From positions 124,001 to 188,000 of the forward strand of contig NZ_AP013042.1 of assembly GCF_001547755.1 (NCBI RefSeq): a stretch of 64,000 bases of DNA, written 5' to 3'. The DNA comes from an endosymbiont of Bathymodiolus septemdierum str. Myojin knoll. Its GTDB lineage: Bacteria; Pseudomonadota; Gammaproteobacteria; PS1; Pseudothioglobaceae. Positions 13,788 to 54,089 of the stretch are shown one piece after another; the stretch's first letter is position 1, and each line of letters starts with the position of its first letter. Below the pieces are notes generated by a model that was not told the DNA's origin, made no database searches, and saw only the letters and a list, made by a program, of their open reading frames with translations. The position numbers and the translations under genes are program-made.

Positions 13788-14267
13788 ATGCCAACTTTTG
13801 TATATATGACCCGTTGTGATGGCTGTGGACATTGTGTCGACATCTGCCCATCTGACATTATGCACATCGATAAGAAGTATCGTCGTGCGCTTAACATTGA
13901 ACCTAACATGTGCTGGGAATGCTACTCATGTGTAAAAGCATGCCCACATCAAGCAATTGATGTTCGTGGTTATGCAGACTTTGCACCACTAGGTCATAGT
14001 GTTCGTGTAATTCGTGATGAAGAAAAAGGCACGATTGCATGGAAAATTAAATTTAGAGATGGTCGTGAGAAGAATTTCTTATCGCCTATCACTACCAAGC
14101 CATGGGGTTCTGCAATTCCTGACTTTAGAAATGAAGCTGAGCCTACGGCTGAAGCGCGTAACTCTGAGTTGTTGGCATTTGAACCTGAGTCAATTCGTTT
14201 AGATGACGGTGGTTTACATACATTAGAATCTAATGGTTTAAAACTGGTTGAAGGAGTATATTACTAA
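13788..14267 (+). CDS. aprB: APS reductase beta subunit (ferredoxin-like)
   Basis: AprB carries two [4Fe-4S] clusters that take electrons from the FAD of AprA. The 159-residue protein has two cluster motifs: CDGCGHCVDICP (C10, C13, C16, C20) and CWECYSCVKACP (C42, C45, C48, C52). The aromatic residue and spacing are as in AprB. The C-terminal part (GYADFAPLGHSVRVIRD onward, including KPWGS) is the extension that wraps AprA. AAGGAG precedes the ATG, and the stop codon overlaps the aprA start (TAATG), giving coupled production of the two subunits. Confidence 0.97.
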   Translation: MPTFVYMTRCDGCGHCVDICPSDIMHIDKKYRRALNIEPNMCWECYSCVKACPHQAIDVRGYADFAPLGHSVRVIRDEEKGTIAWKIKFRDGREKNFLSPITTKPWGSAIPDFRNEAEPTAEARNSELLAFEPESIRLDDGGLHTLESNGLKLVEGVYY

Positions 14268-16174
14268 TGAGTTACAAGACAATTATTGAAGATAACATCG
14301 ACATTTTAGTGGTTGGTGCAGGTTTAGGTGGCACAGGTTCTGCCTATGAAGCGAGACATTGGGGTCGTGATAAGAAGGTTGTGATTGCTGAAAAAGCAAA
14401 CATCGACCGTTCTGGTGCGGTTGCACAGGGTCTATACGCGATTAACTGTTATATGGGTACGCGTTGGGGCGAAAATAATCCAGAAGACCATGTGCGTTAT
14501 GCACGAATGGACTTGATGGGTATGGTTCGTGAAGACTTAGCCTTTGATATGGCGCGTCATGTTGACTCTGCTGTTCATAAGTTTGAAGAATGGGGTTTGC
14601 CTTTAATGAAGGACCCTAAGAGAGCTGAATTACCTGAAGGTGATATCGGTAAAGGTGCTTATATGCGTGAAGGTCGCTGGCAGATTATGATTCACGGTGA
14701 ATCATACAAGCCTATCGTTGCTGAAGCTGCAAAAGTGAATGCTGACAAGACTTTCAACCGTATTATGGTCACACACTTATTAATGGACGATGCACAAGAT
14801 AACCGTGTTGCAGGTGCTGTTGGTTTTAATGTGCGTACAGGTAACTACCATGTATTTAAATCTAAGACTGTTATTGTTGGTGCTGGTGGTGCGTCTAACA
14901 TCTTTAAACCGCGTTCAGTGGGTGAAGGTGCAGGTCGTGTTTGGTATGCACCATGGTCATCAGGTTCTGCGTATGGCTTATTAATTGAAGCCGGTGCAAA
15001 AATGACACAAATGGAAAACCGTATTGTTCTTGCTCGATTTAAAGACGGTTATGGTCCTGTTGGCGCATACTTCTTACACCTTAAGACTTACACTCAAAAC
15101 GCTTATGGCGACGAGTATGAGTCTAAGTGGTTCCCAGAATTAGCAGAAAGAGTAGGTAAAGCCTATCTTGATACTGAAAACCAACATTTCTCACATAAGC
15201 CTATTCCGACTTGTTTGCGTAATCACGCATTCATCTCTGAAGTGGCGGCTGGTCGTGGTCCAATTCACATGGTTACTGTTGAAGCATTCCAAGACCCACA
15301 TTTAGAAGAAGTAGGATGGGAAAACTTCTTAGGTATGACGGTTGGTCAAGCGGTATTATGGGCTGCAACAGACATTGATCCTAAATATATCAACCCTGAA
15401 TTAACGACTTCTGAGCCGTATGTAATGGGTTCACACGCGACAGGTTGTGGCGCATGGTGTTCAGGTCCTGAAGATATCTCAGGTAACATTCCTGAGTACT
15501 TTTGGGGCTACAATCGTATGACTACGGTTGAGGGTTTATTTGGTGCAGGTGACTCTGTTGGTGGAACGCCACATGCGTTTTCTTCGGGTTCGTTCACTGA
15601 AGGTCGTTTGTCTGCTAAAGCTGCTTGTAAATATATTGATGACGGAAAAGCCGAAGGTATCAATGTTTCACAAAAGCAAATTGATGATCGTAAGGCACAA
15701 ATCTACAAACCTTTAGAAACTTATACAGTGGGTCGTAACGAAATTGTTGGTGGCACTGTGTCGCCAAGTTACATCTTGCCAATGCCGGGCCTTCAACGAC
15801 TACAAAAGTTGATGGACGAGTATGCGGGTGGTGTAACCGTTCAGTATATGACGAACGATAAACTTCTAAATATGGGTCTTCACAAGTTGAAGATTATGGA
15901 AGAAGATTTAGAGAAGGTTGCTGCCGAAGACATTCATCAGTTATTGCGTGCATGGGAGCTTAAGCACCGTCATCGCACTTCTGAATGCGTAGTTCATCAC
16001 ACTTTATTCCGTGAGGAAACTCGCTGGCCTGGTTACTACTACCGTGGTGATAAGATGAAACTTGACGATGAAAATTGGCATGTTTTGACGACTTCACAGC
16101 GTGATCGTGTTACTGGTGAGTACAAGATGGAGAAACAACCATTGTATCACCTAGTTGGCGACGACGAGAAGTAA
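14267..16174 (+). CDS. aprA: APS reductase alpha subunit (FAD)
   Basis: AprA holds FAD and, acting in reverse in sulfur oxidisers, makes APS from sulfite and AMP. The 635 residues start with the dinucleotide-binding motif ILVVGAGLGGTGSAYEARHW (about 12-31) and the FAD-contact region DRSGAVAQGLYAINCYMG. Conserved family stretches include PWSSGSAYGLLIEAGA, CGAWCSGPEDISG and RHRTSECVVHHTLFREETRW near the C-terminus. It is the type of alpha subunit used as a marker for sulfur-oxidising lineages. A perfect bidirectional terminator follows 43 bases after the stop. Confidence 0.98.
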   Translation: MSYKTIIEDNIDILVVGAGLGGTGSAYEARHWGRDKKVVIAEKANIDRSGAVAQGLYAINCYMGTRWGENNPEDHVRYARMDLMGMVREDLAFDMARHVDSAVHKFEEWGLPLMKDPKRAELPEGDIGKGAYMREGRWQIMIHGESYKPIVAEAAKVNADKTFNRIMVTHLLMDDAQDNRVAGAVGFNVRTGNYHVFKSKTVIVGAGGASNIFKPRSVGEGAGRVWYAPWSSGSAYGLLIEAGAKMTQMENRIVLARFKDGYGPVGAYFLHLKTYTQNAYGDEYESKWFPELAERVGKAYLDTENQHFSHKPIPTCLRNHAFISEVAAGRGPIHMVTVEAFQDPHLEEVGWENFLGMTVGQAVLWAATDIDPKYINPELTTSEPYVMGSHATGCGAWCSGPEDISGNIPEYFWGYNRMTTVEGLFGAGDSVGGTPHAFSSGSFTEGRLSAKAACKYIDDGKAEGINVSQKQIDDRKAQIYKPLETYTVGRNEIVGGTVSPSYILPMPGLQRLQKLMDEYAGGVTVQYMTNDKLLNMGLHKLKIMEEDLEKVAAEDIHQLLRAWELKHRHRTSECVVHHTLFREETRWPGYYYRGDKMKLDDENWHVLTTSQRDRVTGEYKMEKQPLYHLVGDDEK

Positions 16175-26082: not shown

Positions 26083-26093
26083 ATTTTTATGCG

Positions 26094-27317
26094 TTAAATT
26101 TTTTTTCGGTAAATTACAAAATTATCGTTTTCTATATCTTTTTTCTTGATTGATATTTTTATTTTTCTTTCTGCTCCATTACTATTTTTTCCTTGCTTAA
26201 AATCTACTAAATATTTTTTATTAAATTGATTGATTTCCAATATAGCAAAATTATCCAGAATAACAGAGTGCTTCATTCTCGATAAATAACTATCTAATTT
26301 TTTAAACTTACCTTTACCAGTTTTTTCATAGCGTTCATTTATTTTTTTATTCCAAAATTCAGTAGTTAAGCCATTTTTATCTTTATCTTTATCTTTAATT
26401 GTACTATGGGAAAAAACTATATACCAAACTTTATTATATTGTCTTAATGCTTCGTTAATATTAGTTTTATCATTACCTATCAAATCTCTATCAACACCAT
26501 GTGCTTTTAAATCCCCATAAAATTGCTTTTCTTCAAACCATAAATCCAAATCTATTGCTGTATGTTCTTTATTTTGAACATACTGACAAATGTCTTGATA
26601 ACCAGGATTGTTTCTTAAAAATTCATCAAACTTATATTCTAAATAATATCCAGCCCATTCGCCAAGATAGGCTAAATTAAAATTATTATTCATCATTTCA
26701 ATGTAACAATCAACACCTAGCCAATTAGCATTTAAAGTGTTAGAAAAATCATTAAAAATATTTATTTCGTTTGATAAAGTGGTTTTTTTATTTAACAAAA
26801 CCACATCAAATGCCTTTTCAAAATTTTGTTCAGTAAAAACAATGATGTTATTTCCTTTTTTATCAGTTTTTTCAAATAGGCTTAATTCTTTTGCCTTGAG
26901 TATATCCATTGTATGGATGTGAGCACTTGCATTATTTGCTGAACTATTTTCATAACTTTGTTTATCAAAAATACAGAATACATTTGCATTGTCATAATGA
27001 TACACGCCTAATAGCAAGGTGTTTTTTTGTTTAGATATTGGTTTAAAGTTTTCACCAATTTGTATTCGTTTTTTATAATGCTCCCAATCATCATAATTGC
27101 CAAGTTTATCTTTTTTCCTACCTAAGTAAGTAATGTTTTTTACATATAAATTTATGTCTTTATTTTTATATTTGACAATGTAGGGATTTTTGTTAGATTT
27201 AATTTCTATATACTTCTGTTTAGATAAAAGTAACTTAATTTCATTTGGTTTTAGTTTTTCATCATAATCACTAACAACCCGCCCAGTTTTTGTAATTTGC
27301 TCTATTTTAATTGGCAT
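26094..27317 (-). CDS. Probable type II restriction endonuclease
   Basis: A 407-residue protein that I cannot match to a named enzyme, but it overlaps the cytosine methyltransferase gene by 11 bases on the same strand, the usual partner position. A likely PD-(D/E)XK core is IDLDLWFEEKQFYGDLKAHG (about 255-274), with D256 or D258 and the D269-L-K271 pair, followed by helix and strand RQYNKVWYIVFSHS. It is much more AT- and lysine/asparagine-rich than the flanking purF and metZ, consistent with transfer. Recognition sequence unknown. Confidence 0.75.
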   Translation of the reverse strand: MPIKIEQITKTGRVVSDYDEKLKPNEIKLLLSKQKYIEIKSNKNPYIVKYKNKDINLYVKNITYLGRKKDKLGNYDDWEHYKKRIQIGENFKPISKQKNTLLLGVYHYDNANVFCIFDKQSYENSSANNASAHIHTMDILKAKELSLFEKTDKKGNNIIVFTEQNFEKAFDVVLLNKKTTLSNEINIFNDFSNTLNANWLGVDCYIEMMNNNFNLAYLGEWAGYYLEYKFDEFLRNNPGYQDICQYVQNKEHTAIDLDLWFEEKQFYGDLKAHGVDRDLIGNDKTNINEALRQYNKVWYIVFSHSTIKDKDKDKNGLTTEFWNKKINERYEKTGKGKFKKLDSYLSRMKHSVILDNFAILEINQFNKKYLVDFKQGKNSNGAERKIKISIKKKDIENDNFVIYRKKI

Positions 27318-28662
27318 AACTTCTCATATTTTGAATAACTTTTTTAACTACTTCTATATTGACAGAGTTTCCTAGTTGTTTTAAAGCGATATTATTTTGG
27401 ATAGGTAGTGCAAAATCAACAGGAAAAGATTGTAATTTCTTAGTTTCCTTTGGCGTTAATCTGCGTTTGTATTTTCCAATAATTTGCGGTTGGTTCATTG
27501 CCACTAAAGTTGAAAATTTATTAGGTCTTTTGACTCGAATACCAGATGGTCTAAATTGAATTAAGCCCTCATAAATATTATCAATATCTGCACCAGCCTG
27601 CCATTCCATTTTTTGTTGTGTTGGTTTCATCCAATCTAAATAATTATATTTTTTTAGCCATTTGTCAATAAATTTTTTATTACGCTTATAAAGTTCTCTA
27701 TTTTTTAAAATAAAATTTACCTTCCATTTTGGCGTGTCAATAATTTTATAGTCTTTATTAAATTCCTTTGCCCATATTGGGTAACCAATGACTTTAATAT
27801 CAATACCTAGATAAAATTCATTCCAAGCCTCTAAAACTTTTGTTTCATAATCAGAAATATAGAACTCTTTATTAACAGGTTTTTTATCTACAATAGCGTA
27901 AGCTCCTTTTTCATTAGCTAAAGATAAAGAAGTAGAAAGGTTTAATGAAAATTTATCTTTTTTTATTAACGCCTTTTTAATGGCTGGTATAAAAATACGC
28001 TTTCTAATGGCTGGGATTCCAAAATCATCAGGGCTTAAAATTAAAGGACTGGTATTTATTGCATAACCCAATTCATCCAAAGTATTGCAAATTGTTTCAA
28101 ATGTTTTACCATTATCGTGAGTGACTAAATTTTGTACATTTTCAAGTAGTATGTAACTAGGATTATGGTGTTTTATAATTCTAGCGACATCAAAGAACAA
28201 AGTACCCCTCGTGTCTTCAAAGCCTTTTCTATGCCCTCCTTTAGAAAATGGCTGACAAGGAAAACCTGCAAATAAAAAATCAAAATTAGGGATGTCCTTT
28301 TCGTCAATCTTGGTAATATCACCTGCAAAGTTGCCTGAATAAAATAAATCTTTATTGTGCCTCAAAAAATTTGCTTCGTAAGTTTTTCGGGCATTTTCAT
28401 CAAACTCACTGGCAAAAACACACTTTCCACCTAAGCTTGAAGCGGCGAGGTGAAAGCCACCAATACCTGCAAATAAATCAATAAAAGTAAAATCAGGTTT
28501 ATTATAGTCATGTTCTTCTGTTTCAAAATGGTCTAATAACCCCACTTGAAAGGCATCCTCCACACCATCAAGTGTTTCTTGGTGTTCTAAGACTGGATAA
28601 AAACTACCGTATTCTTTTTTTGAGGAATAATCAATTTTAGAAATGTCTTTGATTTTTGCCAT
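27307..28662 (-). CDS. DNA cytosine-C5 methyltransferase of a type II restriction-modification system
   Basis: A 451-residue C5-cytosine methyltransferase. Motif I is DLFAGIGGFH (62-71), motif IV PCQPFS with the catalytic cysteine C136, motif VI ENVQN (174-178), motif VIII is the variant IRKRIFIP, and motifs IX-X include RRLTPKETKKLQSFP and LKQLGNSVN at the end. The target-recognition region between VIII and IX is long (about 230-390). It starts four bases after purF ends, so the pair sits inside the purF-metZ operon with almost no added spacer. Confidence 0.94.
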   Translation of the reverse strand: MAKIKDISKIDYSSKKEYGSFYPVLEHQETLDGVEDAFQVGLLDHFETEEHDYNKPDFTFIDLFAGIGGFHLAASSLGGKCVFASEFDENARKTYEANFLRHNKDLFYSGNFAGDITKIDEKDIPNFDFLFAGFPCQPFSKGGHRKGFEDTRGTLFFDVARIIKHHNPSYILLENVQNLVTHDNGKTFETICNTLDELGYAINTSPLILSPDDFGIPAIRKRIFIPAIKKALIKKDKFSLNLSTSLSLANEKGAYAIVDKKPVNKEFYISDYETKVLEAWNEFYLGIDIKVIGYPIWAKEFNKDYKIIDTPKWKVNFILKNRELYKRNKKFIDKWLKKYNYLDWMKPTQQKMEWQAGADIDNIYEGLIQFRPSGIRVKRPNKFSTLVAMNQPQIIGKYKRRLTPKETKKLQSFPVDFALPIQNNIALKQLGNSVNIEVVKKVIQNMRSYAN

Positions 28663-28666
28663 AGGG

Positions 28667-30181
28667 TTATTCTACGTCATTACAGATAAGTTCTGAACTT
28701 TCGTTGGATTGGTGTTTTTGTTTGACAGTGTCGGAGCGTATATCTTCGATGCCTTGTAGGTAATTTTTATCAATATCACCAGTAACATATTTACCGTCAA
28801 AACAAGAATTATCAAAGGTCTTAATATCCGGATTGCCTTGCTGTACGCACCAAATTAAATCCTCTAAATTCTGATAAATTAATTTATCAGCACCAATGGC
28901 TTCGCACACTTGCTCGGTGGTTTTGCCATGGGCAATAAATTCTTTCTCGCTTGACATATCAATACCGTAAACATTTGGATAACGCACCGCAGGAGCGGCG
29001 GAGGCAAAAAAGACTTTTTTAGCGCCCGCATCACGAGCCATTTTGACAATTTGCTCGCTGGTGGTGCCACGCACGATAGAGTCATCGACCAATAAAACAT
29101 TTCTGCCTTTAAATTCAAGTTCAATGGCGCTGAGCTTCTGACGCACTGATTTTTTACGCTGTTTTTGTCCAGGCATAATGAAAGTGCGAGCGATGTAGCG
29201 ATTTTTAATCAAGCCTTCGGAATATTTTACGCCGAGTTTTTGTGCCAATTGTAGGGCTGCTACGCGCGAGGTATCTGGAATTGGAATAACCACATCAATT
29301 TTTTCATTCCACTCATTTTGGATTTTTTCTGCTAATTTTTCACCCATTCTTAGGCGAGATTTATACACAGAAATATTGTCAATCACAGAATCTGGACGGG
29401 CAAAATAAACAAATTCAAAGATACAAGGGGCGTATTGAGCCTTGTCTGAACATTGCTTGGTGAAAACATTGCCTTTTCTATCAATCACAACACCTTCACC
29501 CGGCGTGATGTCACGCGTTACCTTGTAGCCCAACGCTGTGAGTGCAACGCTTTCTGATGCCAACATATATTTAGTACCACCATTCGTGGTGCGCTTGCCT
29601 AAAATCAATGGGCGAATGCCATTTGGGTCGCGGAAACCAAAAATACCATAGCCTGGAATCATACCAACCGCTGCATAGGCGCCACGGACTCTTTTGTGTA
29701 CTTGGGTAATTGAGGTGAAAATATCTTTTTCATTAATGCGCTGTTTTTCTAATTTTGCCAATTCTCCAGCGAATACATTCAGTAGGATTTCTGAATCAGA
29801 ATTGGTATTAATGTGGCGTAAATCCTGTTCGAATAATTCTTTTTCCAATTCTTTTGTATTGGTTAAATTGCCATTATGAGCAAAAGCAATACCGTAAGGG
29901 GAATTGACATAAAACGGTTGCGCCTCCGCACCTGATGAGCTGCCTGCTGTCGGATAACGCACATGTCCAATACCCATATCGCCTAAGAGTCCAGCCATAT
30001 GCTTGGCTCTAAAGGCGTTTCTAACCAGACCATTTGACTTACGCATATAAAAGCGACCTTTGTGCGAAGTAACAATGCCAGCAGCATCTTGTCCACGGTG
30101 TTGAATAATGGTTAACGCATCATAAATATAAAGCGCTGTGTCTTTTTTTGTGGTGGATAAAATACCGACAATGCCGCACAT
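28667..30181 (-). CDS. purF: Amidophosphoribosyltransferase
   Basis: PurF makes phosphoribosylamine from PRPP and glutamine, the first step of purine synthesis. The 504 residues begin with MCGIVGI, where C2 is the Ntn-type glutaminase nucleophile after removal of Met1. The PRPP-binding loop is VLLVDDSIVRGTTSEQI. It follows cvpA by nine bases, the classical order. Confidence 0.97.
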   Translation of the reverse strand: MCGIVGILSTTKKDTALYIYDALTIIQHRGQDAAGIVTSHKGRFYMRKSNGLVRNAFRAKHMAGLLGDMGIGHVRYPTAGSSSGAEAQPFYVNSPYGIAFAHNGNLTNTKELEKELFEQDLRHINTNSDSEILLNVFAGELAKLEKQRINEKDIFTSITQVHKRVRGAYAAVGMIPGYGIFGFRDPNGIRPLILGKRTTNGGTKYMLASESVALTALGYKVTRDITPGEGVVIDRKGNVFTKQCSDKAQYAPCIFEFVYFARPDSVIDNISVYKSRLRMGEKLAEKIQNEWNEKIDVVIPIPDTSRVAALQLAQKLGVKYSEGLIKNRYIARTFIMPGQKQRKKSVRQKLSAIELEFKGRNVLLVDDSIVRGTTSEQIVKMARDAGAKKVFFASAAPAVRYPNVYGIDMSSEKEFIAHGKTTEQVCEAIGADKLIYQNLEDLIWCVQQGNPDIKTFDNSCFDGKYVTGDIDKNYLQGIEDIRSDTVKQKHQSNESSELICNDVE

Positions 30182-45726: not shown

Positions 45727-46959
45727 TTAACCATTACCTTTCTTTAAGTTACAACTAGCACATAAAGTTTGCCCATTTTCTATAGTTGTTTTTCCACCTT
45801 TTGAATGAGGGATAATATGGTCAGCATGCATATCTTTAAACTCAATTCCACACCCGCATTGTTTGCATTTTTCATTATCTCTACGCCACATGACTATTTT
45901 TTGATTTGCATCAAATGCCCTTTGAGCATCCTTGGTTTCTAAATTCATAATTTCTCTAAATAATTTATGTGTATAAACCTCATTTCTAATTTTTATATTT
46001 CTACGCACCCCACCTGCTTTGAATGCATCAATATAATCATACAAATCTTTTGCCCAAGTATCATTTTGTTCTATCAATTCTGACGGGTCTTCAACACTTC
46101 TTCTTTCTTGCTCAAAACCAACATAAAAAGCTGCAAAATCTTGTTTTTTATTATTTGTGATATACTCTCTTGAAAGTAGTGAAATCAATAAATAAAAATC
46201 AATGAATCCCCATTGAACATTTAATTCTGGCACAACTTCATCAAATGCATCAAAAATAAAATTAAGTATTTTTTTAATGTTTTTTGCTTCTTTAGACTCA
46301 ACATCAAAATTTACATTATTCTGATACATTTCTTTTAAATTTTTAGCTTTAATATCCGTCTCACCACCTGCTAATTCTAAGCAAACTACATGTGCCAACC
46401 AGTCTGCATATTTATATCTTTTATCTTCTACGGGAATAATTTGAAACACTTTATGAGTTGTTAATTCAGCAATAAAATCACGCATATTTCCCATAATAGC
46501 ATTTCTATTTTCTGGAGCATTTAATGGCATTCCTTTTTGCAATCGTGAAAATAAATCTCTAATTTCTACATCAGAAGCATCTTCAATGAATACTACAGAT
46601 AAAACATAAGCATCTAATTTATCTTTGGCATCAATTGGTAAATGTTCATGCTTTTTACCCGATAAATTCCCTATAGGTAAATTTATACTATCATCACCTA
46701 ATGAATAATCATTATTATAATAACCCCAAATAGCTCTCAACCGTTGCTGTCCATCAATAACTTCATATTTATATTTATTGTTACTACTGTTAGTAAGGTA
46801 GATTTTAGGCATATCATAGCCTCGCAATATTGTATCTATCAATAGTTGTTTTTTCTTATCTGACCATACCTCGGGTCTTTGATATTGTGGTTTAGGATTA
46901 ATTTCATTTTGCCTTCTACTGATTGAGATTAGTGGTAAAGGCTGAGGATTAATTTTCAT
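45727..46959 (-). CDS. DUF262 (ParB-like) and HNH endonuclease fusion
   Basis: A 410-residue protein with an N-terminal DUF262 domain (YQRPEVWS at 26-33 and VIDGQQRLRAIWGY at 67-80), the ParB-like nucleotide-sensing domain found in GmrS and SspE, and a C-terminal HNH nuclease: CKQCGCG (C365, C368), HADHIIPHSKGG (H378, D380, H381) and CASCN (C400, C403, N404). All zinc ligands and the catalytic histidine are present. GmrSD and SspE carry a DUF1524 nuclease rather than this McrA-type HNH. It is the last intact gene of the cluster, with AGGAAG before the start. Confidence 0.88.
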   Translation of the reverse strand: MKINPQPLPLISISRRQNEINPKPQYQRPEVWSDKKKQLLIDTILRGYDMPKIYLTNSSNNKYKYEVIDGQQRLRAIWGYYNNDYSLGDDSINLPIGNLSGKKHEHLPIDAKDKLDAYVLSVVFIEDASDVEIRDLFSRLQKGMPLNAPENRNAIMGNMRDFIAELTTHKVFQIIPVEDKRYKYADWLAHVVCLELAGGETDIKAKNLKEMYQNNVNFDVESKEAKNIKKILNFIFDAFDEVVPELNVQWGFIDFYLLISLLSREYITNNKKQDFAAFYVGFEQERRSVEDPSELIEQNDTWAKDLYDYIDAFKAGGVRRNIKIRNEVYTHKLFREIMNLETKDAQRAFDANQKIVMWRRDNEKCKQCGCGIEFKDMHADHIIPHSKGGKTTIENGQTLCASCNLKKGNG

Positions 46960-46968
46960 GTTTCTTCC

Positions 46969-47811
46969 TTATAAATTGTTAGCAATTAATTTTATTTCTT
47001 CTCTATTTAACTCGGGAGTTTGAATTTCTATAGCCTTCCAAGCACTTAAATATGAGATTGTTTTAATGACATTGTTTAATTTTCCTTTTAAATTATTTTC
47101 ATTTAAAAACAACAAAAGACCACCAAGCGTATTAATTTGGCTGATATAACTATCTTTTGAAAACATTCTTTCAGAAAAAACACCATAACTTGTTTCGTCA
47201 AAAATTGTTAGTATTTCCTCAAAATTCAAACTAATTTCGTTTGACATCTTGTTTGCCCAATTCCAACGCCAATACGCCTTACCCAAATAAAAATCATTAA
47301 ACACAATTCGTTTTCCTCGAGGTGCTGGATTACCCATGGAGCGAAGAATTCTACGAACACAGTCATCTACTTTCTTGTTATCATCAGAAGTAATAGCACT
47401 ATCAAGCATATAAATTCCCGTTTCATTAACGCCGTTTAAATTAGAAGCCAAATATTCAGGCTTGATACAATCATATTTAATCATATTGATAATCACATTA
47501 CCCCAAAAACCACAATATCCCATATATTCTCGCTCTACTTTTTCAAAAGCATCCCAAATTATTTTTTGAGTATCTATTGGTGGAAATCTAAATTCCGCTT
47601 CGGTAAATTGATGGTCAAAATATATATTACCTCCCTCTATTATTATGTCTTTATCATTGATTAATTTTTCATTTAAATAATTTAAAAAATCTTTTTTACC
47701 ATTTCTACAAATTTGTAAAAATTCTATTTGTTCATCAGACCCCTTATTATTTAAAAGACTTTTCCCAAAATTATTCCAAGCACTCTCATCAATTCTTTTA
47801 TATTCAGTCAT
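46969..47811 (-). CDS. Cluster protein of unknown function
   Basis: I do not recognise this 280-residue protein. It is AT-rich, rich in Asn, Lys and Ile, cytoplasmic, and helical in its second half (NINEL-like leucine-rich end). A central basic segment GNPAPRGKRIVFNDFYLGKA (about 172-191) could bind nucleic acid. A very strong AAGGAGG lies in the end of the small upstream gene, whose TAA touches this ATG, and nine bases separate it from the DUF262-HNH gene. It is thus a fixed member of the cluster. Confidence 0.75.
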   Translation of the reverse strand: MTEYKRIDESAWNNFGKSLLNNKGSDEQIEFLQICRNGKKDFLNYLNEKLINDKDIIIEGGNIYFDHQFTEAEFRFPPIDTQKIIWDAFEKVEREYMGYCGFWGNVIINMIKYDCIKPEYLASNLNGVNETGIYMLDSAITSDDNKKVDDCVRRILRSMGNPAPRGKRIVFNDFYLGKAYWRWNWANKMSNEISLNFEEILTIFDETSYGVFSERMFSKDSYISQINTLGGLLLFLNENNLKGKLNNVIKTISYLSAWKAIEIQTPELNREEIKLIANNL

Positions 47812-47964
47812 TTAGTTATCCTCCTTATTTAAGGCTTCAATATCATAAGGTATCATTTTTGTGGCAGCAAAACTTGGATTGAAATCATTTTCATTTTCCC
47901 AATCTTGTCCTGTCTGCTCCTTTACATTTTCCATATGCATTAACAACCCACTATGAATTGTCAT
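47812..47964 (-). CDS. Small cluster protein of 50 residues
   Basis: A short frame from ATG 47964 (or from ATG 47940, giving 42 residues) to TAA 47812. The longer form overlaps the upstream gene by 14 bases. The product is acidic with a polar middle (QDWENENDFNPSFAATKM) and no membrane segment. Its stop is directly adjacent to the start of the next gene and its last codons contain that gene's AAGGAGG ribosome-binding site, so it is translated or at least serves as coupling leader. No homologue recognised. Confidence 0.5.
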   Translation of the reverse strand: MTIHSGLLMHMENVKEQTGQDWENENDFNPSFAATKMIPYDIEALNKEDN

Positions 47965-48679
47965 CTGTTTTGTCTTTTATCTGATTCATATGAGCATAAA
48001 CAGCACATAAAATTTGCGTAACAATTGATTGCCTCATTGCCATTTTTGTATCCATTATATTGCCTGAAAAGCCTTTATCCAATTCGTCATAAACATCTTG
48101 AGCACAAATAATTTTAATAGGCTGCTCCCCTTCTCCTTTATTTACATCAACAATAGTTCTAATAACACCATTGCTGTAACTTTCCTCCATATCTTTCCAC
48201 ATCAATGAAGATACATCACCACTGGTAAATTTTAATTTTGAATAATGTGCTATTCTTGCATAGGCGGGAATAGTAAATATTTCACCATTCCAAAAACCAC
48301 TTAAACCAGAATTATTATCAACAGTAATTTTGACATCTTTAAAAATGATAATATTTGGTGTTATTTCAGGTGCGTAACGAAAATCAATATTTATTTCTTG
48401 TTTAGAAGTAATCTCTTTGGACTTATCATTATAATCAAAATCCTCACAAACAAACTTTTGTCTTTCGGCGTTATCTTTATAAAACAAAGCCACAGAAAAT
48501 TTAGCCTTTTTATCTTTTATAAGTTGAGAAATAAAGGAATTTCCCTTAAGTGTATGAGTAATGTAGAGCTTTCTATTATTTTGTGCTTGTGTTGCCTCTA
48601 CAACATAAGAAATACCATCTAAAAAATCACCGCCACCATTTTTTAAAACTGGGAAACTTAATATTAAATCATCAGTCAT
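47951..48679 (-). CDS. Cluster protein of unknown function
   Basis: I do not recognise this 242-residue protein. It appears beta-strand rich, with GFWNGEIFTIPAYARIAHYS in the middle and helical QSIVTQILCAVYAHMNQIKD at the end. No signal peptide or membrane segment. It starts within the stop codon of the preceding gene (TAATG), so the two are probably made together and may form one complex. Confidence 0.72.
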   Translation of the reverse strand: MTDDLILSFPVLKNGGGDFLDGISYVVEATQAQNNRKLYITHTLKGNSFISQLIKDKKAKFSVALFYKDNAERQKFVCEDFDYNDKSKEITSKQEINIDFRYAPEITPNIIIFKDVKITVDNNSGLSGFWNGEIFTIPAYARIAHYSKLKFTSGDVSSLMWKDMEESYSNGVIRTIVDVNKGEGEQPIKIICAQDVYDELDKGFSGNIMDTKMAMRQSIVTQILCAVYAHMNQIKDKTDDNS

Positions 48680-49254
48680 TATTTACTCCTTTGTTTTAAG
48701 CCTAAAAATGGCCTTAGAGCCACACTAATATCTTTGATATTTTTCGGTTTTTTGATTGTAGCTTCTACGCTATAAGTCTGTGCCTCTGACAATGTTCCTA
48801 ATTTAATTTGGGTTTTGTCTGCTTCTTGTTTTTCAATATTTCCATCCTCTTGTTCTACTTCCACAAACTCTGGTATTTCTATATCCACCCCATCTATCGA
48901 CAAACTAATAAAATCTAAGGCGTTTCCACTTTCATCATTGTCTTTATCTTGTGCTAAACTCATTGATAAATAAACCTCATCTTTTGCTTCAATTTTTTGT
49001 GGCGTTATATTTAATTCAATATCGATAGTGCCTCCCTTATCTTTCATTCTCATTGAATTTTTTGCCTCTAAATATCTACTAACAATGATAGGTGCCGGTC
49101 GTTTTTTACCTTTATTGGTCGTTTTTACTTTGTTGATAGGTGGCTTTGGCTTATTAGCATTAGGCTTAGCTTTGGGTGTTTGACTCCTAGGTCGACTAGT
49201 ATTTGAACCCTGTGCTTCAGCCTTATTTGGAATTTCCAATAAAGGCATTGACAC
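48679..49254 (-). CDS. Cluster protein of unknown function with a proline/lysine-rich N-terminus
   Basis: I do not recognise this 191-residue protein. Residues 12-55 are a low-complexity basic linker rich in Pro, Lys, Asn and Ser (PKAKPNANKPKPPINKVK), suited to DNA binding or to tethering; the rest is an acidic beta-rich domain (IDIELNITPQKIEAKDEVYL). The first usable start is GTG at 49254 (ATG at 49248). The frame stays open further upstream into the GHKL gene and reads like protein (FLKARDRSGSLVSMPLLEIP), so the true start may be a rare codon upstream. Confidence 0.65.
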   Translation of the reverse strand: MSMPLLEIPNKAEAQGSNTSRPRSQTPKAKPNANKPKPPINKVKTTNKGKKRPAPIIVSRYLEAKNSMRMKDKGGTIDIELNITPQKIEAKDEVYLSMSLAQDKDNDESGNALDFISLSIDGVDIEIPEFVEVEQEDGNIEKQEADKTQIKLGTLSEAQTYSVEATIKKPKNIKDISVALRPFLGLKQRSK

Positions 49255-49280
49255 TAAAGATCCACTTCTATCTCTTGCTT

Positions 49281-50567
49281 TTAAAAAGATTTTATTTTTT
49301 CGCTTAACTCTTTCAGTAATGCTTTTAGCTGTTTTTCATCTTTTTTAATAAGACGATTTTTTTCTAATTTATTATGATATGGATTTTCTGCCCCTTTGAT
49401 TAGTTCAAATAATTTAGGACATTCTTTATCATCAACATTAATTACCACTGAAAATGGTTCAAAGTCTTCATTTTTTCTAAGACTGTTTATTTCATTAGCA
49501 AGCATTTTGTCATGTCTAGCAATTAGCATACCATTTCTAATCAAGACAATAACTGAATTGGCTTCAATATTATTTCTAATATGAACACAAACCTCGTCAC
49601 CATTATCTAAATCAATTTTTGATTTGTGGTTATTATTTTTAACCGCTAGCCACGCTTGATAAACATCACTACCGCATAAGATGTTGCCATCCATTGCTCT
49701 TGTATTATCTTGATTTTTTTCTAACAATCTATCAATATCACTTTTATCAATAGTGTCATGGTCAATCTTTACTATTAATTCTTGCTTGTTGATGGCATAG
49801 AAAAAATTACTAACAATAGCGTAATTTGCCTCTTTATCCCATTCTTTGTTTAACCCTAAAATCGCCACCATTGAACCAGTAGCTTCCAATTTATCCATTT
49901 TATTTTGAATAAAACTGGGGTATATTGTCGGAAAAATAAATTTTGGTTTGTTCTCATTCTCTGGAATACTTTTTAAAATTCTGCCAGTAGCTCCTCGAGT
50001 TGCGTCATCGTCTTCGAAACCAGCCAAAATTGGTGTACCGCTAAATAAAGTTTTAATAACCTCGTCGTTGTTTTTGTATTTACTAGCATATAAGACATAA
50101 CGAAGAGATGATAAAAAATAAGGCGATAAATGCCCAACACCAAACGAACCACCAGACCCTTCGCTAGACTTTACACTTCTTTCACCAATTAGACCGTTCA
50201 ATATATCGGGTGACATGCCTTTACCATTATCAACAAACATTAAAATTTTTAATTTATCTTTTCCTAATTCTTGCTGAATGGTATTTACTATTTGCTCTGC
50301 ATTATGATTATAACTATCTACACTTTTGTGGAATTCAATTGCTGTATTTAAGGTGTCTTCATAGTCTTTTATGTGCGGAATAGTGGTCTTATTAATACTT
50401 TCAATATAAATATTTATCTCACATTTGTTATTGTCCGCATCTTTAGAAGCGTCTAAACTATTTTGTAATAATTCTCTAATAGGATTAGCGTATCCACTCT
50501 TTTTATCAGCTAATTTCTTAGAAGTAAAGCCCTCAGTTTCGCCTGTTCTAAAATACAATTTTGACAT
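49281..50567 (-). CDS. GHKL (Hsp90/MutL-like) ATPase
   Basis: A 428-residue protein with an N-terminal GHKL ATPase domain: N-box ELLQNSLDAS (32-41) with the Mg-binding Asn, G1 box VDNGKGM (112-118) and the lid/G2 box GSGGSFGVGHLSPY (137-150). No Hsp90 middle or client domain, no histidine-kinase phosphoacceptor and no MutL endonuclease motif was seen, so it is a free-standing GHKL protein like those in several anti-phage systems, where ATP-driven dimerisation controls an effector. AAGGAG precedes the start. It follows the PP-loop gene by 15 bases. Confidence 0.85.
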   Translation of the reverse strand: MSKLYFRTGETEGFTSKKLADKKSGYANPIRELLQNSLDASKDADNNKCEINIYIESINKTTIPHIKDYEDTLNTAIEFHKSVDSYNHNAEQIVNTIQQELGKDKLKILMFVDNGKGMSPDILNGLIGERSVKSSEGSGGSFGVGHLSPYFLSSLRYVLYASKYKNNDEVIKTLFSGTPILAGFEDDDATRGATGRILKSIPENENKPKFIFPTIYPSFIQNKMDKLEATGSMVAILGLNKEWDKEANYAIVSNFFYAINKQELIVKIDHDTIDKSDIDRLLEKNQDNTRAMDGNILCGSDVYQAWLAVKNNNHKSKIDLDNGDEVCVHIRNNIEANSVIVLIRNGMLIARHDKMLANEINSLRKNEDFEPFSVVINVDDKECPKLFELIKGAENPYHNKLEKNRLIKKDEKQLKALLKELSEKIKSF

Positions 50568-50582
50568 TTTTTTATTCTCCTT

Positions 50583-51842
50583 TTAATCGGTGCAGTTACA
50601 CGGAATAGCACTATCTAACTTTAATAATTCTGGATCAATTTTTTCGCCACTATCAACTTTCTTTTTAATGTCTTCAAAAACAAACTTATTAATACCGCCA
50701 AAAAAACCCACAAATTTAGTGTTTTCTTTAGTAATAGGCCTGCCCTCTGCAACTAAATCACGACTATATTTTTTTTCTATATTTATCCACCAGTCTATGC
50801 TTTCTGGCGTGTCTTTGTCAATATTTTTTTCCAATTGCAAAGTGGCAATCTGCTGTAATTTCGCTTTGCTTTTAAGTGGGCAATAAAGACAATTAGAAAA
50901 AAGCCCTGTATTGGATAATTTTAAATTAAAGTTTTGTCGCTCCCAAAACTCTATTACTTGTTCTTGAGTAATATTATTATCAACCAATGGGGCGTAAATA
51001 CTTTCACCATGAGGTTGGTTAAATAATGATTTTCCTTGATTTTCTTGAGCTTCATCAATTCTATTTTCAATTTTAGTTATTCGTCTTTGCTCATCGTTTC
51101 TAATACCTAGGACTGATACATAATCCACTGCTAAATCACCATATAATTGTGCTTTATTACCAATAACACTTTCTACCAAGTCTTCATTGTCAATGATGAT
51201 ATTTGCTTTTGTCCAATCCTGCCAAAACTGTTTTTCTCTAACAAACGCACAACTTCTAACAAATTCTTTTTTAGACAGCAAGATAGCCTCTGGAACGCTA
51301 CCGCCATTCTTTTTATGTATTTTTTTAACATCATCATCTGACATTTTAGGATTTTTACCATAATGCCCTAATCTCTCAATACCTTGTTTTTGTGCAAACC
51401 AGTCACTTAAAAAAGCATTAGTGATAAAAATTTTCATTGATATAGTGCAAATTCTAGACACCATACTTGGTAAAAATCCGCCAAGTGAAATCATTTCTTC
51501 AAATACTTCTCCCTTATAACGATAACCGCCAAGATTATCTTGACTAAGAGGTTGGTCATTAACTAATTTATAAGAAGGTTTTCTTGACCATTGATAAGTA
51601 CCACTTGAATCCTCATAAGTTTGGTATTCAATCCAAAAAAATGGAATATTATATTGCTCCTCTGACATTTTTTTCATTTGTCGAGTAAATTCATAAGTAG
51701 CAGAATGTTCAGCAGAAGTATTATTAAAGATAATGATATCACCTCGTTTTGGATCAAGCTGACCTTCTTCAAGTAGATTCATCAACATCATGCCTGACGA
51801 CCTACCCCCTGAGAATTTAACAATGTGTGGCTTATTATTCAT
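50583..51842 (-). CDS. PAPS-reductase-family PP-loop protein
   Basis: A 419-residue member of the PAPS reductase/adenine nucleotide alpha hydrolase family. The PP-loop is KFSGGRSSGMML (9-20, consensus SGGxSS) and ICTISMK (C132) matches the CT-x-x-x-K element of the family. Cysteines C318 and C321 (NCLYCPLK) and C415 and C417 (PCNCTD) could hold an iron-sulfur cluster, as in DndC. Family members include DndC and SspD, which activate DNA for phosphorothioation. The cysK/cysH role is unlikely given size and context. It overlaps the BRO-like gene by eight bases and is followed by the GHKL ATPase. Confidence 0.85.
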   Translation of the reverse strand: MNNKPHIVKFSGGRSSGMMLMNLLEEGQLDPKRGDIIIFNNTSAEHSATYEFTRQMKKMSEEQYNIPFFWIEYQTYEDSSGTYQWSRKPSYKLVNDQPLSQDNLGGYRYKGEVFEEMISLGGFLPSMVSRICTISMKIFITNAFLSDWFAQKQGIERLGHYGKNPKMSDDDVKKIHKKNGGSVPEAILLSKKEFVRSCAFVREKQFWQDWTKANIIIDNEDLVESVIGNKAQLYGDLAVDYVSVLGIRNDEQRRITKIENRIDEAQENQGKSLFNQPHGESIYAPLVDNNITQEQVIEFWERQNFNLKLSNTGLFSNCLYCPLKSKAKLQQIATLQLEKNIDKDTPESIDWWINIEKKYSRDLVAEGRPITKENTKFVGFFGGINKFVFEDIKKKVDSGEKIDPELLKLDSAIPCNCTD

Positions 51843-52683
51843 CGTTTTTGCCTAAACTATTTGGATTTAAAAAGTTGTTGTCATTAACAATTTTTTTCGT
51901 AGTTTTTTGTTCTAATTCTTTTCTAGCATTTTTGGCGATACTACCGCCTTTCTTGGCAGATTCTTTGTTTTCATTAAAGCCAATTGCACCATCACTTTGT
52001 GCAATTTGGCGGGTGGACAATTCTGCTAAAGCGGTAAAAAGTAATTCTGCTTCGCTCATATGGTCGCGCAAGTTTTGAGTGTCTAAATTTTTAAGTGCTT
52101 TGTGTTCTTTGACTGATAGATCGCTCCATTCAGAGTGAATAATGTTAGTAAGTGTTGCAAATTCTAAGCCTGTTTTAACTTCATTTTCTTGCCAATAATC
52201 CGTAAGTTTGTTACGGGTTTCTTGCCCGCTCATTCTCTTTTCAATCCATTTTTTACTTCTGCCTGCTTTCTGCCAATTTTCTCTAGCGCGATTAAGCGAC
52301 TGTTCAGGGTCGGTGATTTCTTGGATTCTCTCGTTGCCTACTTTTGCAAGCCAAAGTTTAATTGGTTCGGCTTTTTTACTGGGGACGGACTGGATAATTC
52401 TAAAAAGGGTTTGGGTGTCTGCCACATCGGTGAGATATTTTTTACCATCTGCTGCCGGTAATTTCAGTTGGTCACAATTTGTGACCAACTGAGAGTTTTC
52501 TTTGTTTAGTCTTTCTTTAAGGGTGCTCCAATAAGATTTTGCTTTTTTGTAGTTATGCTGTTCAGTCAAAACTGCGACAATATCAATCACTGAGAAAAAC
52601 CATTTCTCTTGTTCTTTATCAAAATGACGGCGGATTTTAAAATCTTCAAACAGTTGTGGAGCTCTTGTGATTTTTTCAGCCAT
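51835..52683 (-). CDS. DinD-like BRO-N domain protein
   Basis: A 282-residue protein like DNA-damage-inducible protein D and phage BRO antirepressors. The N-terminal BRO domain covers about residues 10-120 (WFFSVIDIVAVLTEQHNYKK, YWSTLKERL, YLTDVADTQTLFRIIQSVPS, KLWLAKVGNERIQE). E. coli DinD inhibits RecA. The C-terminal half carries NIIHSEWSDLSVKEHKALKN and a basic tail. It starts two bases after lpdA ends, so it is the first gene of the accessory cluster and may be its regulator or be read through from aceF-lpdA. Confidence 0.85.
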   Translation of the reverse strand: MAEKITRAPQLFEDFKIRRHFDKEQEKWFFSVIDIVAVLTEQHNYKKAKSYWSTLKERLNKENSQLVTNCDQLKLPAADGKKYLTDVADTQTLFRIIQSVPSKKAEPIKLWLAKVGNERIQEITDPEQSLNRARENWQKAGRSKKWIEKRMSGQETRNKLTDYWQENEVKTGLEFATLTNIIHSEWSDLSVKEHKALKNLDTQNLRDHMSEAELLFTALAELSTRQIAQSDGAIGFNENKESAKKGGSIAKNARKELEQKTTKKIVNDNNFLNPNSLGKNDE

Positions 52684-52685
52684 TA

Positions 52686-54089
52686 TTATCTTTTCTTCGG
52701 TGGCAGTAAGTCGGTAATCGTGCCTTCTGCCATTTCAACGGCGAAAGCAGTAGTTTCGCTGAGGGTTGGGTGGGCGTGGATGGTGAGTGCAATGTCACTC
52801 ATATCGCAGCCCATCTCAATGGCAAGGGTGGGTTCGGCGATGAGCTCACCTGCGTTAGTACCGCAGATGCCCATGCCTAAAATACGGTGTGTGTGTTTGT
52901 CGAATAGGGCTTTGGAGATACCTTCACTTCTGCCGATACTTAAACTTCTTCCTGAGGCTGCCCATGGAAATTTTCCGACTTCATAATCAATACCTTCTGC
53001 TTTTAATTCTTTTTCAGTTTTACCTGTCCAGGCGACTTCTGGGTCGGTGTAGGCGACTGAGGGGATGGTCAATGCATCAAAGCCTGATTTGTGTCCACAG
53101 ATAACTTCAGCAGCCACTTTGGCCTCGTGAACGGCTTTGTGGGCGAGCATAGGTTGGCCGACGATGTCGCCGATGGCGTAGATATTTTCTACATTGGTTT
53201 TCATTTGTTTATCGACTTTGATAAAGCCCCAGTCGTCAACATTAACACCTGCTTTATTGGCGTCAATTAGTTTGCCATTTGCACTGCGACCAATGGATAC
53301 CAAGACTTTGTCAAAAGTATCTGTTTCTGGTGCATTTTTGCCTTCAAAGCCGACTTTTATGCCGTCATTTTGTGCGTCCATACTGGTAACTTTGGTGTTT
53401 AGAAAGATATTTTCGTATTGCTTTTTAATGCGTTTAAATAGTGGGGCAACAATGTCTTTATCGGCCGCTGCAATCAGTTGGTCTGACAATTCTACCACCG
53501 TGATTTCACTGCCTAATGCCGCGTAAACCGTTGCCATTTCCAGTCCGATGATACCACCACCAACGACCAATAAGCGTTTTGGCACACTGTCTAATTCTAA
53601 AGCATCGGTTGAGTCCATTACGCGTGGGTCGTCGAATGGAAAAGCAGGGATTTTACTAACGCGAGAGCCTGCGGCAATGATACACTGTTCAAATTCAACG
53701 ATTTCGTCACTGCCCTCAATAGCAATTTGGGTGTTGGAAATGAATTTCCCGTAGCCTTTGACTACTTTCACTTTTCTTGCATTTGCCAAGGCTTTAATGC
53801 CATCTGTTAATTTAGCAACCACGGCATCTTTGTTCTTTCGTACGCCGTCAATGCTGATTTCTGGACTGCCGAATGTCACACCAAGATGTTTTGCTTCTGC
53901 GGCTTCGTTAATGATTTCTGCGGTGTGAAGTAAAGCTTTTGAAGGGATGCAGCCGACATTTAAGCACACGCCACCCAAACTTTCATAGCGTTCAATTAGC
54001 ACCACTTGTTTGCCTAAATCTGCCGCGCGAAATGCAGCCGTGTAGCCTCCTGGGCCTGAACCAATAACAACAACTTGCGTTTTAATCAT
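52686..54089 (-). CDS. lpdA: Dihydrolipoyl dehydrogenase (E3)
   Basis: FAD disulfide oxidoreductase that reoxidises lipoamide in pyruvate or 2-oxoglutarate dehydrogenase complexes. The 467 residues have the FAD motif VVIGSGPGGYTAAFRAADLG, the redox-active GGVCLNVGCIPSK (C42 and C47), the NAD motif VVGGGIIGLEMATVYAALGS and the catalytic HAHPTLSE close to the end. It overlaps aceF by eight bases. Confidence 0.96.
   Translation of the reverse strand: MIKTQVVVIGSGPGGYTAAFRAADLGKQVVLIERYESLGGVCLNVGCIPSKALLHTAEIINEAAEAKHLGVTFGSPEISIDGVRKNKDAVVAKLTDGIKALANARKVKVVKGYGKFISNTQIAIEGSDEIVEFEQCIIAAGSRVSKIPAFPFDDPRVMDSTDALELDSVPKRLLVVGGGIIGLEMATVYAALGSEITVVELSDQLIAAADKDIVAPLFKRIKKQYENIFLNTKVTSMDAQNDGIKVGFEGKNAPETDTFDKVLVSIGRSANGKLIDANKAGVNVDDWGFIKVDKQMKTNVENIYAIGDIVGQPMLAHKAVHEAKVAAEVICGHKSGFDALTIPSVAYTDPEVAWTGKTEKELKAEGIDYEVGKFPWAASGRSLSIGRSEGISKALFDKHTHRILGMGICGTNAGELIAEPTLAIEMGCDMSDIALTIHAHPTLSETTAFAVEMAEGTITDLLPPKKR

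What the first reader, a model, noticed from the sequence alone, without database searches (positions are those of the whole stretch)
26094..28662. Restriction-modification pair inserted precisely between purF and metZ
In many gammaproteobacteria the order is folC-cvpA-purF-metZ. Here a C5-methyltransferase and its likely endonuclease lie between purF and metZ, with four and eleven base junctions and without damage to either gene. The pair would be read from the purine/folate operon, tying restriction to housekeeping transcription. The low GC of both supports transfer.
Basis: partly seen in the sequence, partly recalled or inferred. Interest (0 to 1): 0.6.

Follow-up and report, generated by a model that had tools for sequence, protein, structure and literature searches.

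The report
Mosaic restriction-modification cassette between purF and metZ
A two-gene bacterial system for telling self from foreign DNA sits neatly between two housekeeping genes, and comparison with relatives in this family of mussel and clam symbionts shows that it belongs to a set of exchangeable, patchwork defence cassettes that keep turning up at the same few chromosomal spots and then decaying.

Summary
A C5-cytosine methyltransferase (27307-28662) and an MTaX1-type restriction endonuclease (26094-27317), overlapping by 11 bp, lie between intact purF (4 bp) and metZ (11 bp), with low GC3 (22 and 18 against a median of 35).

It is not a one-off recent insertion. The nearest relatives, G002 and G005 (99% clade with the window genome), keep wrecks of the same pair at the same junction, overwritten by a two-gene HTH_73/NOV_C module. 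Other congeners with both genes have no insert there.

The same cassette family occupies efp|sucC, the 3' side of lpdA and the 3' side of mutY in other genomes. The window genome has a second pair (NgoFVII-type) at efp|sucC and a defence-like island behind lpdA, inside this window.

The methyltransferases are mosaic: a shared N-terminal half to motif IV (PCQPFS), then unrelated C-terminal halves (breakpoint at residues 131-141, 0 of 5000 permutations). The leader of the window's methyltransferase is a RadC remnant; relatives carry RadC fused in frame to the methyltransferase.

This works like Neisseria minimal mobile elements: a new variant with mosaic, RadC-derived modules. Enzyme activity, target site and mode of movement are untested.

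The parts
27307..28662 (-). C5-cytosine DNA methyltransferase (MTase A), 451 aa
   Evidence: PF00145 E 7e-80; TIGR00675 268 bits; PADLOC MTase_II PDLC03272 1e-94
28501..28662 (-). MTase A leader (about residues 1-54), RadC-derived: residues 1-13 resemble the start and residues 19-54 the tail plus linker of the fused RadC of relatives, with about 190 aa (HhH and JAB domains) missing
   Evidence: alignment; fused-RadC query hits this stretch, E 6e-8; Pfam of the fusions
28237..28662 (-). MTase A shared N-terminal half (residues 1-142, through motif IV), common to cassettes at purF|metZ, efp|sucC, lpdA and mutY sites
   Evidence: segment identities; family search; max-chi2 tests
28243..28260 (-). 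motif IV PCQPFS, where recombination breakpoints fall in relatives
27307..28236 (-). MTase A variable C-terminal half (target-recognition region and later motifs), very different from that of MTase B in the same genome
   Evidence: 25-55% aa to MTase B after residue 143 against 80-91% between residues 58 and 142
26094..27317 (-). Type II restriction endonuclease (REase A), 407 aa
   Evidence: PADLOC REase_II PDLC03409 E 2e-53; PF20296
26811..27161 (-). MTaX1 domain of REase A (residues 53-169)
   Evidence: PF20296, 84 bits
26505..26555 (-). candidate PD-(D/E)XK catalytic stretch IDLDLWF...GDLK (residues 255-271), conserved in the G022 homologue
   Evidence: alignment; assignment is inference, fold model too poor to confirm
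28663..28666 (.). 4-bp junction to purF (stop codon ends at 28667)
26083..26093 (.). 11-bp junction to metZ
28667..30181 (-). purF, intact left flank
   Evidence: TIGR01134 508 bits
24913..26082 (-). metZ, intact right flank
   Evidence: NF006003 615 bits
28669..28697 (-). promoter-like TTCAGA-17-TAGAAT in the purF 3' end, 6 bp before the MTase ATG
   Evidence: consensus match only, number of matches near chance
45727..52683 (-). low-GC defence-like island starting 2 bp after the lpdA stop, i.e. at another landing site of the same cassette family
   Evidence: GmrSD_N+HNH and PDC-M33A matches; lpdA ORF 52686-54089; RadC-MTase cassettes behind lpdA in G006 and G008

Best explanation
The insert is a Type II R-M cassette: a C5 methyltransferase and its endonuclease, encoded in overlapping frames in the direction of purF-metZ, which most likely methylates the cell's own sites and cuts unmethylated incoming DNA. 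It is one occupant of a family-wide set of landing sites (purF|metZ, efp|sucC, 3' of lpdA, 3' of mutY) where whole R-M or related cassettes are gained, swapped and lost. New specificities seem to arise by recombination inside the methyltransferase gene at motif IV: the resident leader and catalytic N-terminal half stay, while the target-recognition half and probably the endonuclease behind it are replaced. The window's methyltransferase descends from a RadC-methyltransferase fusion by an internal deletion of RadC. Shown by sequence: anatomy, remnants, shared sites, mosaic breakpoint, RadC fusion and relic. Inferred: enzyme activity, exchange by homologous recombination, order of events.
For: Anatomy and families. 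G005 and G002 hold an MTase N-terminal remnant directly after purF and a REase A C-terminal remnant directly before metZ, with a 166-aa ORF and an HTH_73/NOV_C gene between; the three genomes form a 99% clade. No insert in the other congeners with both genes. In the same genome a second pair, MTase B plus NgoFVII-type REase B, sits exactly at efp|sucC. The efp|sucC gap exceeds 1 kb in ten family genomes and is about 53 bp in many others, holding leader-type C5 MTases, NOV_C, a D12 adenine MTase, REase A or REase B ends. The A-type MTase is at efp in G438 (81% aa) and behind purF in G028 (79%). Mosaicism: 80-91% aa between MTases A and B from residue 58 to 142, then 25-55%; the right part of MTase B is 75-79% to the leaderless G010 MTase; breakpoint at A residues 131-141, 0/5000 permutations, with like results in G006 and G442. 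RadC (PF20582+PF04002) is fused to PF00145 in G006 and G028, with RadC plus MTase N-half in G008. Published: a B. septemdierum symbiont population has a very high recombination rate (PMC7473567).
Against: No methylome, expression or restriction data. Four-fold sites are near saturation, so transfer cannot be dated and vertical descent at each site with differential loss is not excluded for part of the pattern. Homologous recombination is inferred from breakpoints and from the lack of integrase and target repeats, not observed. Many comparison genomes are MAGs; the G028 contig runs from the MTase into rpsE and may be chimeric. REase A has no intact homologue in the genomes searched, so its pairing with this MTase rests on adjacency and on remnants at both sites.
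Confidence: 0.72

Rival explanations
1. Ordinary single horizontal transfer: one R-M pair landed by chance between purF and metZ, with no special site or mechanism.
For: Low GC and GC3; no insert in most relatives; no REase homologue in plasmids, phages or outside the family in the class sample.
Against: Same cassette family at purF|metZ and efp|sucC in several genera and behind lpdA and mutY; remnants in both sisters; a second pair of the same MTase family at efp|sucC in the same genome.
Confidence: 0.12
2. Permissive-site effect: these junctions are only places where any insertion does no harm, and the shared N-half reflects an old duplication of one R-M system in the family followed by divergence of the fast-evolving recognition half, not module exchange.
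For: Synonymous sites saturated, divergence of cassettes similar to that of core genes; recognition regions evolve fast in general.
Against: The right part of MTase B is 75-79% aa to the G010 MTase while its left part is only 34-58% to it over residues 58-125; single sharp breakpoint, 0/5000 permutations. Divergence alone does not make one half nearer to A and the other nearer to a different gene.
Confidence: 0.1
3. RadC-guided mobile R-M cassette: the RadC domain fused to the methyltransferase takes part in placing the cassette at gene junctions, and the window copy is a derivative that has lost RadC.
For: RadC-C5 MTase fusions behind lpdA and purF; RadC before a D12 adenine MTase in G007; RadC remnants in the efp|sucC gap of g2 genomes; JAMM-like HNHPSGDPTPSKQD kept. 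RadC domains occur in proteins of mobile elements (PMC5512222).
Against: RadC has no established recombinase activity; cassettes without RadC are at the same sites; no target repeat found.
Confidence: 0.06

Closest known systems
Minimal mobile elements (MMEs) of Neisseria, especially the Type II R-M content at pheS/pheT (PMC3898611, PMC3082526)
   Same: Different whole-gene cassettes, R-M systems among them, between two conserved genes, without integrase or terminal repeats.
   Different: Here related cassettes occupy at least four different junctions across genera, the exchange also cuts inside the MTase gene at motif IV, and the leader derives from RadC. Exchange by homologous recombination is inferred, not shown.
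Type II R-M systems with a C5 MTase and MTaX1 REase (PF00145 with PF20296; PADLOC MTase_II / REase_II)
   Same: Same gene families, adjacent and co-directional.
   Different: RadC-derived MTase leader; recognition site unknown; no intact close REase homologue found.
NgoFVII-type R-M pair (MTase B/REase B at efp|sucC in the same genome)
   Same: Shares the N-terminal half of the MTase with the window pair.
   Different: Different MTase recognition half and a different endonuclease family (PF20731).
Domain shuffling in Type I S subunits and in H. pylori R-M systems (from general knowledge, not tested here)
   Same: Specificity changes by exchange of recognition parts while the catalytic part stays.
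   Different: Here the unit swapped is the C-terminal half of a Type II C5 MTase, apparently with its endonuclease.
RadC domain in polyvalent and mobile-element proteins (PMC5512222)
   Same: RadC/JAB joined to other DNA-acting domains in mobile contexts.
   Different: Fusion to a C5 MTase of an R-M system; no match covering 80% of the fusion in plasmid or phage records.

Membership tests
Type II restriction-modification system | DNA methyltransferase with catalytic motifs | tested here: met
   PF00145 full-length match, DLFAGIGG and PCQPFS present
Type II restriction-modification system | Adjacent restriction endonuclease of a known family | tested here: met
   PDLC03409 over residues 3-404, PF20296
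Type II restriction-modification system | Same recognition site for both enzymes; cutting blocked by methylation | not testable with these tools
   needs expression or methylome
PD-(D/E)XK nuclease | Fold core with D...(D/E)XK | tested here: inconclusive
   IDLDLWF...GDLK conserved with G022; model pLDDT 39.5, not usable
Minimal mobile element | Different whole-gene cassettes between the same two conserved genes in different genomes | tested here: met
   purF|metZ: intact R-M pair, 166-aa ORF plus NOV_C, decayed C5 MTase; efp|sucC: several kinds of C5 MTase, NOV_C, D12 MTase; compared between species, not strains
Minimal mobile element | No integrase, transposase or target repeats of its own | tested here: met
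   only the two ORFs in the insert; flank repeat at chance level
Minimal mobile element | Exchange by homologous recombination through the flanks | not testable with these tools
   inferred only; needs population data
RadC-methyltransferase fusion | UPF0758_N and RadC JAB domains in frame with the MTase | tested here: not met
   window MTase has only the RadC start and tail; relatives G006 and G028 meet it
Integrase- or transposon-borne element | Recombinase gene and terminal or target repeats | tested here: not met

The most novel reading that the evidence does not exclude
A previously undescribed class of mobile R-M cassette: a RadC-DNA methyltransferase fusion that helps to place itself at the ends of housekeeping genes, and that renews its specificity by swapping everything behind motif IV, with the window's pair a RadC-deleted descendant.
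Probability: 0.15. Interest if true: 0.78.

Novelty: new variant of a known kind. Interest (0 to 1): 0.57.

Why it matters
It gives a concrete, multi-species record of how R-M systems come, change specificity and decay at fixed chromosomal spots in host-associated bacteria, a group reported to be rich in R-M genes (PMC4612132). The motif-IV junction suggests a simple route by which a Type II system could change target while keeping its catalytic half, which can be tested. The RadC-methyltransferase fusion is a lead on RadC, whose function is disputed.

Tried and rejected
Close REase relatives in plasmids, phages, viral contigs, 369 class genomes and 398 phylum genomes: none outside the family. 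First genome-contig scan: nothing; second, with an alignment, only the two known fragments, which gave organism names. Target-site duplication at the junctions: not above chance. Dating by synonymous sites: saturated. Structure of REase A: model too poor (pLDDT 39.5), so no fold search was made. Recognition site from palindrome avoidance: several 4-mers are strongly avoided (ACGT, GATC, GGCC), but with at least three R-M systems in the genome none can be assigned to this pair. Literature for a RadC-C5 MTase fusion: nothing specific in the titles and passages returned.

Full report
1. Check. Both neighbours are full length. The MTase is PF00145/TIGR00675; the REase has an MTaX1 domain (PF20296) and matches PADLOC REase_II PDLC03409 over nearly its whole length. 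GC3 is 22 and 18 against a window median of 35. The window is G000:C1:124001-188000 of a single-contig 1,469,434-bp genome. Two comparison genomes were named through the search for related loci: G005 is a Candidatus Thiodubiliella endoseptemdiera MAG (Bathymodiolus septemdierum symbiont, same genus) and G022 a Candidatus Ruthturnera MAG. That the window itself is a Bathymodiolus symbiont genome is likely, but rests on this kinship and on memory of its size.

2. Ancestry at this junction. In 83 family genomes purF and metZ are neighbours with gaps mostly of 8-160 bp; G000, G002, G005 and G029 exceed 1 kb (gaps read by eye from coordinates). G005 keeps an MTase N-terminal remnant 4 bp after purF and a REase A C-terminal remnant shortly before metZ. 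Between them stand a 166-aa ORF, an HTH_73/NOV_C gene and a MITE-like hairpin. G002 keeps 25 aa of the leader after purF and scraps of the REase end before metZ around the same 166-aa ORF and a broken NOV_C gene. The three genomes form a 99% clade in a purF+metZ tree. The simplest reading is one arrival before their split, survival in the window genome and overwriting in the other two.

3. More landing sites. The window genome has a second pair, MTase B (365 aa) and REase B (NgoFVII type, PF20731, PDLC03479), exactly between efp and sucC. That gap exceeds 1 kb in ten family genomes and is about 53 bp in many. Its contents include leader-type C5 MTases, whole or decayed (G011, G004, G007, G009), an A-type MTase in G438 (81% aa) with a REase A end before sucC on another contig, NOV_C with a REase A end (G022), NOV_C alone (G434), NOV_C with REase B ends (G431, G432) and a D12 adenine MTase (G430). 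Behind lpdA, G006 has a RadC-MTase plus REase B and G008 a RadC-MTase; G442 has an MTase B/REase B pair behind mutY. In the window itself a low-GC island with GmrSD_N-HNH and PDC-M33A matches starts 2 bp after lpdA. A further C5 system of the genome, a BanI-type pair near 817 kb, lacks the leader.

4. Mosaic MTase. MTases A and B agree at 80-91% aa from residue 58 to 142 and at 25-55% after it. MTase B behind residue 143 is 75-79% aa to the leaderless MTase of G010 up to residue 395, to which its left part is only 34-58% over residues 58-125. A max-chi2 test puts the break between residues 131 and 141, around motif IV (PCQPFS at 135), with 0 of 5000 permutations as extreme; G006 gives the same place and G442 a break at 144-146. 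The remnants in G005 and G002 also stop near motif IV. This supports exchange of the recognition half behind a resident catalytic half. That the endonuclease moves along with it is inferred from REase B following B-type halves in G000, G006 and G442, and from REase A ends at the sites that hold or held A-type halves.

5. RadC. In G006 and G028 one ORF carries UPF0758_N, the RadC JAB domain and the MTase; G008 has RadC and the MTase N-half in one ORF that ends just after motif IV. These are three separate assemblies, though the G028 contig continues into rpsE and may be chimeric. The window MTase begins with a RadC-like start (residues 1-13) joined to the RadC tail and linker (residues 19-54), lacking about 190 aa; the fused RadC query finds this stretch at E 6e-8. 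The genome's own other radC is only 33% identical to the fused RadC. In G007 a RadC with the same linker stands before a D12 adenine MTase, in the same frame after one stop codon. RadC scraps lie in the efp|sucC gap of g2 genomes. No plasmid or phage record matched 80% of the fusion; one viral contig matched the MTase part only.

6. How it most likely works. The pair is predicted to be a Type II R-M system that protects against foreign DNA. It may be transcribed with purF or from the promoter-like TTCAGA-17-TAGAAT ending 6 bp before the ATG, but promoter-like matches in the region are near chance in number. Exchange most likely goes by homologous recombination, as proposed for minimal mobile elements of Neisseria, where Type II R-M content at pheS/pheT differs between strains (PMC3898611, PMC3082526). 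Bathymodiolus septemdierum symbionts have a very high effective recombination rate (PMC7473567), and Bathymodiolus symbionts are enriched in R-M genes (PMC4612132). No integrase and no flank repeat above chance were found.

7. Limits. No activity, target or expression data. Four-fold sites are saturated, so transfer and vertical descent with loss cannot be separated for each site. The REase fold was not confirmed. The family sample has one genome per species and many fragmented MAGs.

8. Verdict. Observation confirmed; interpretation partly supported. Filed as a Type II R-M cassette that works like a minimal mobile element, new variant: recurrent sites shared by one cassette family, mosaic MTase with a motif-IV junction, RadC-derived leader.

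Noticed in passing
window 45727-52683: Low-GC island of defence-like genes (GmrSD_N-HNH, PDC-M33A, a 419-aa ORF with weak SspD/BrxP matches, a 282-aa ORF directly after lpdA) starting 2 bp after lpdA, another landing site of the cassette family.
   Followed up: partly
window, whole: Strong avoidance of short palindromes: ACGT 4 observed against 132 expected, GATC 39/196, GGCC 35/167, CCGG 24/73; fits long exposure to several R-M systems.
   Followed up: partly
L027 12595-14021; L028 12211-13417: Two-gene module (166-aa ORF of unknown family plus HTH_73/NOV_C protein) that overwrote the R-M pair in G005 and G002; a NOV_C gene follows a C5 MTase in G010 (L047), so it may be an endonuclease.
   Followed up: partly
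L029 5370-5936 and 5933-6859: In G022 the C-terminal part of REase A (188 aa, GDLK stretch kept) stands as its own ORF behind an intact NOV_C gene, upstream of sucC.
   Followed up: partly
L027 about 14255-14415; L054, L098 near the efp site: MITE-like hairpin (ends TTTGCATAAATATGAATAATCATC and complement) recurs beside cassettes in G005, G011 and G007.
   Followed up: no
L097 883-2736: G028 ORF joins RadC, MTase N-part and ribosomal protein S5 in one frame, behind purF; possibly a chimeric contig.
   Followed up: no
L052 1871-4430: G029 (genus g2) has a 2.5-kb purF-metZ insert with only faint C5 MTase remnants.
   Followed up: partly
L050, L054, L055, L099, L046, L060, L100 upstream of the MTase ATG: Shared TTTGTTTGTAAAAT just before the cassette start at efp and mutY sites, like a -10 box close to the ATG; purF offers GTAGAATAA at the same place.
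   Followed up: no
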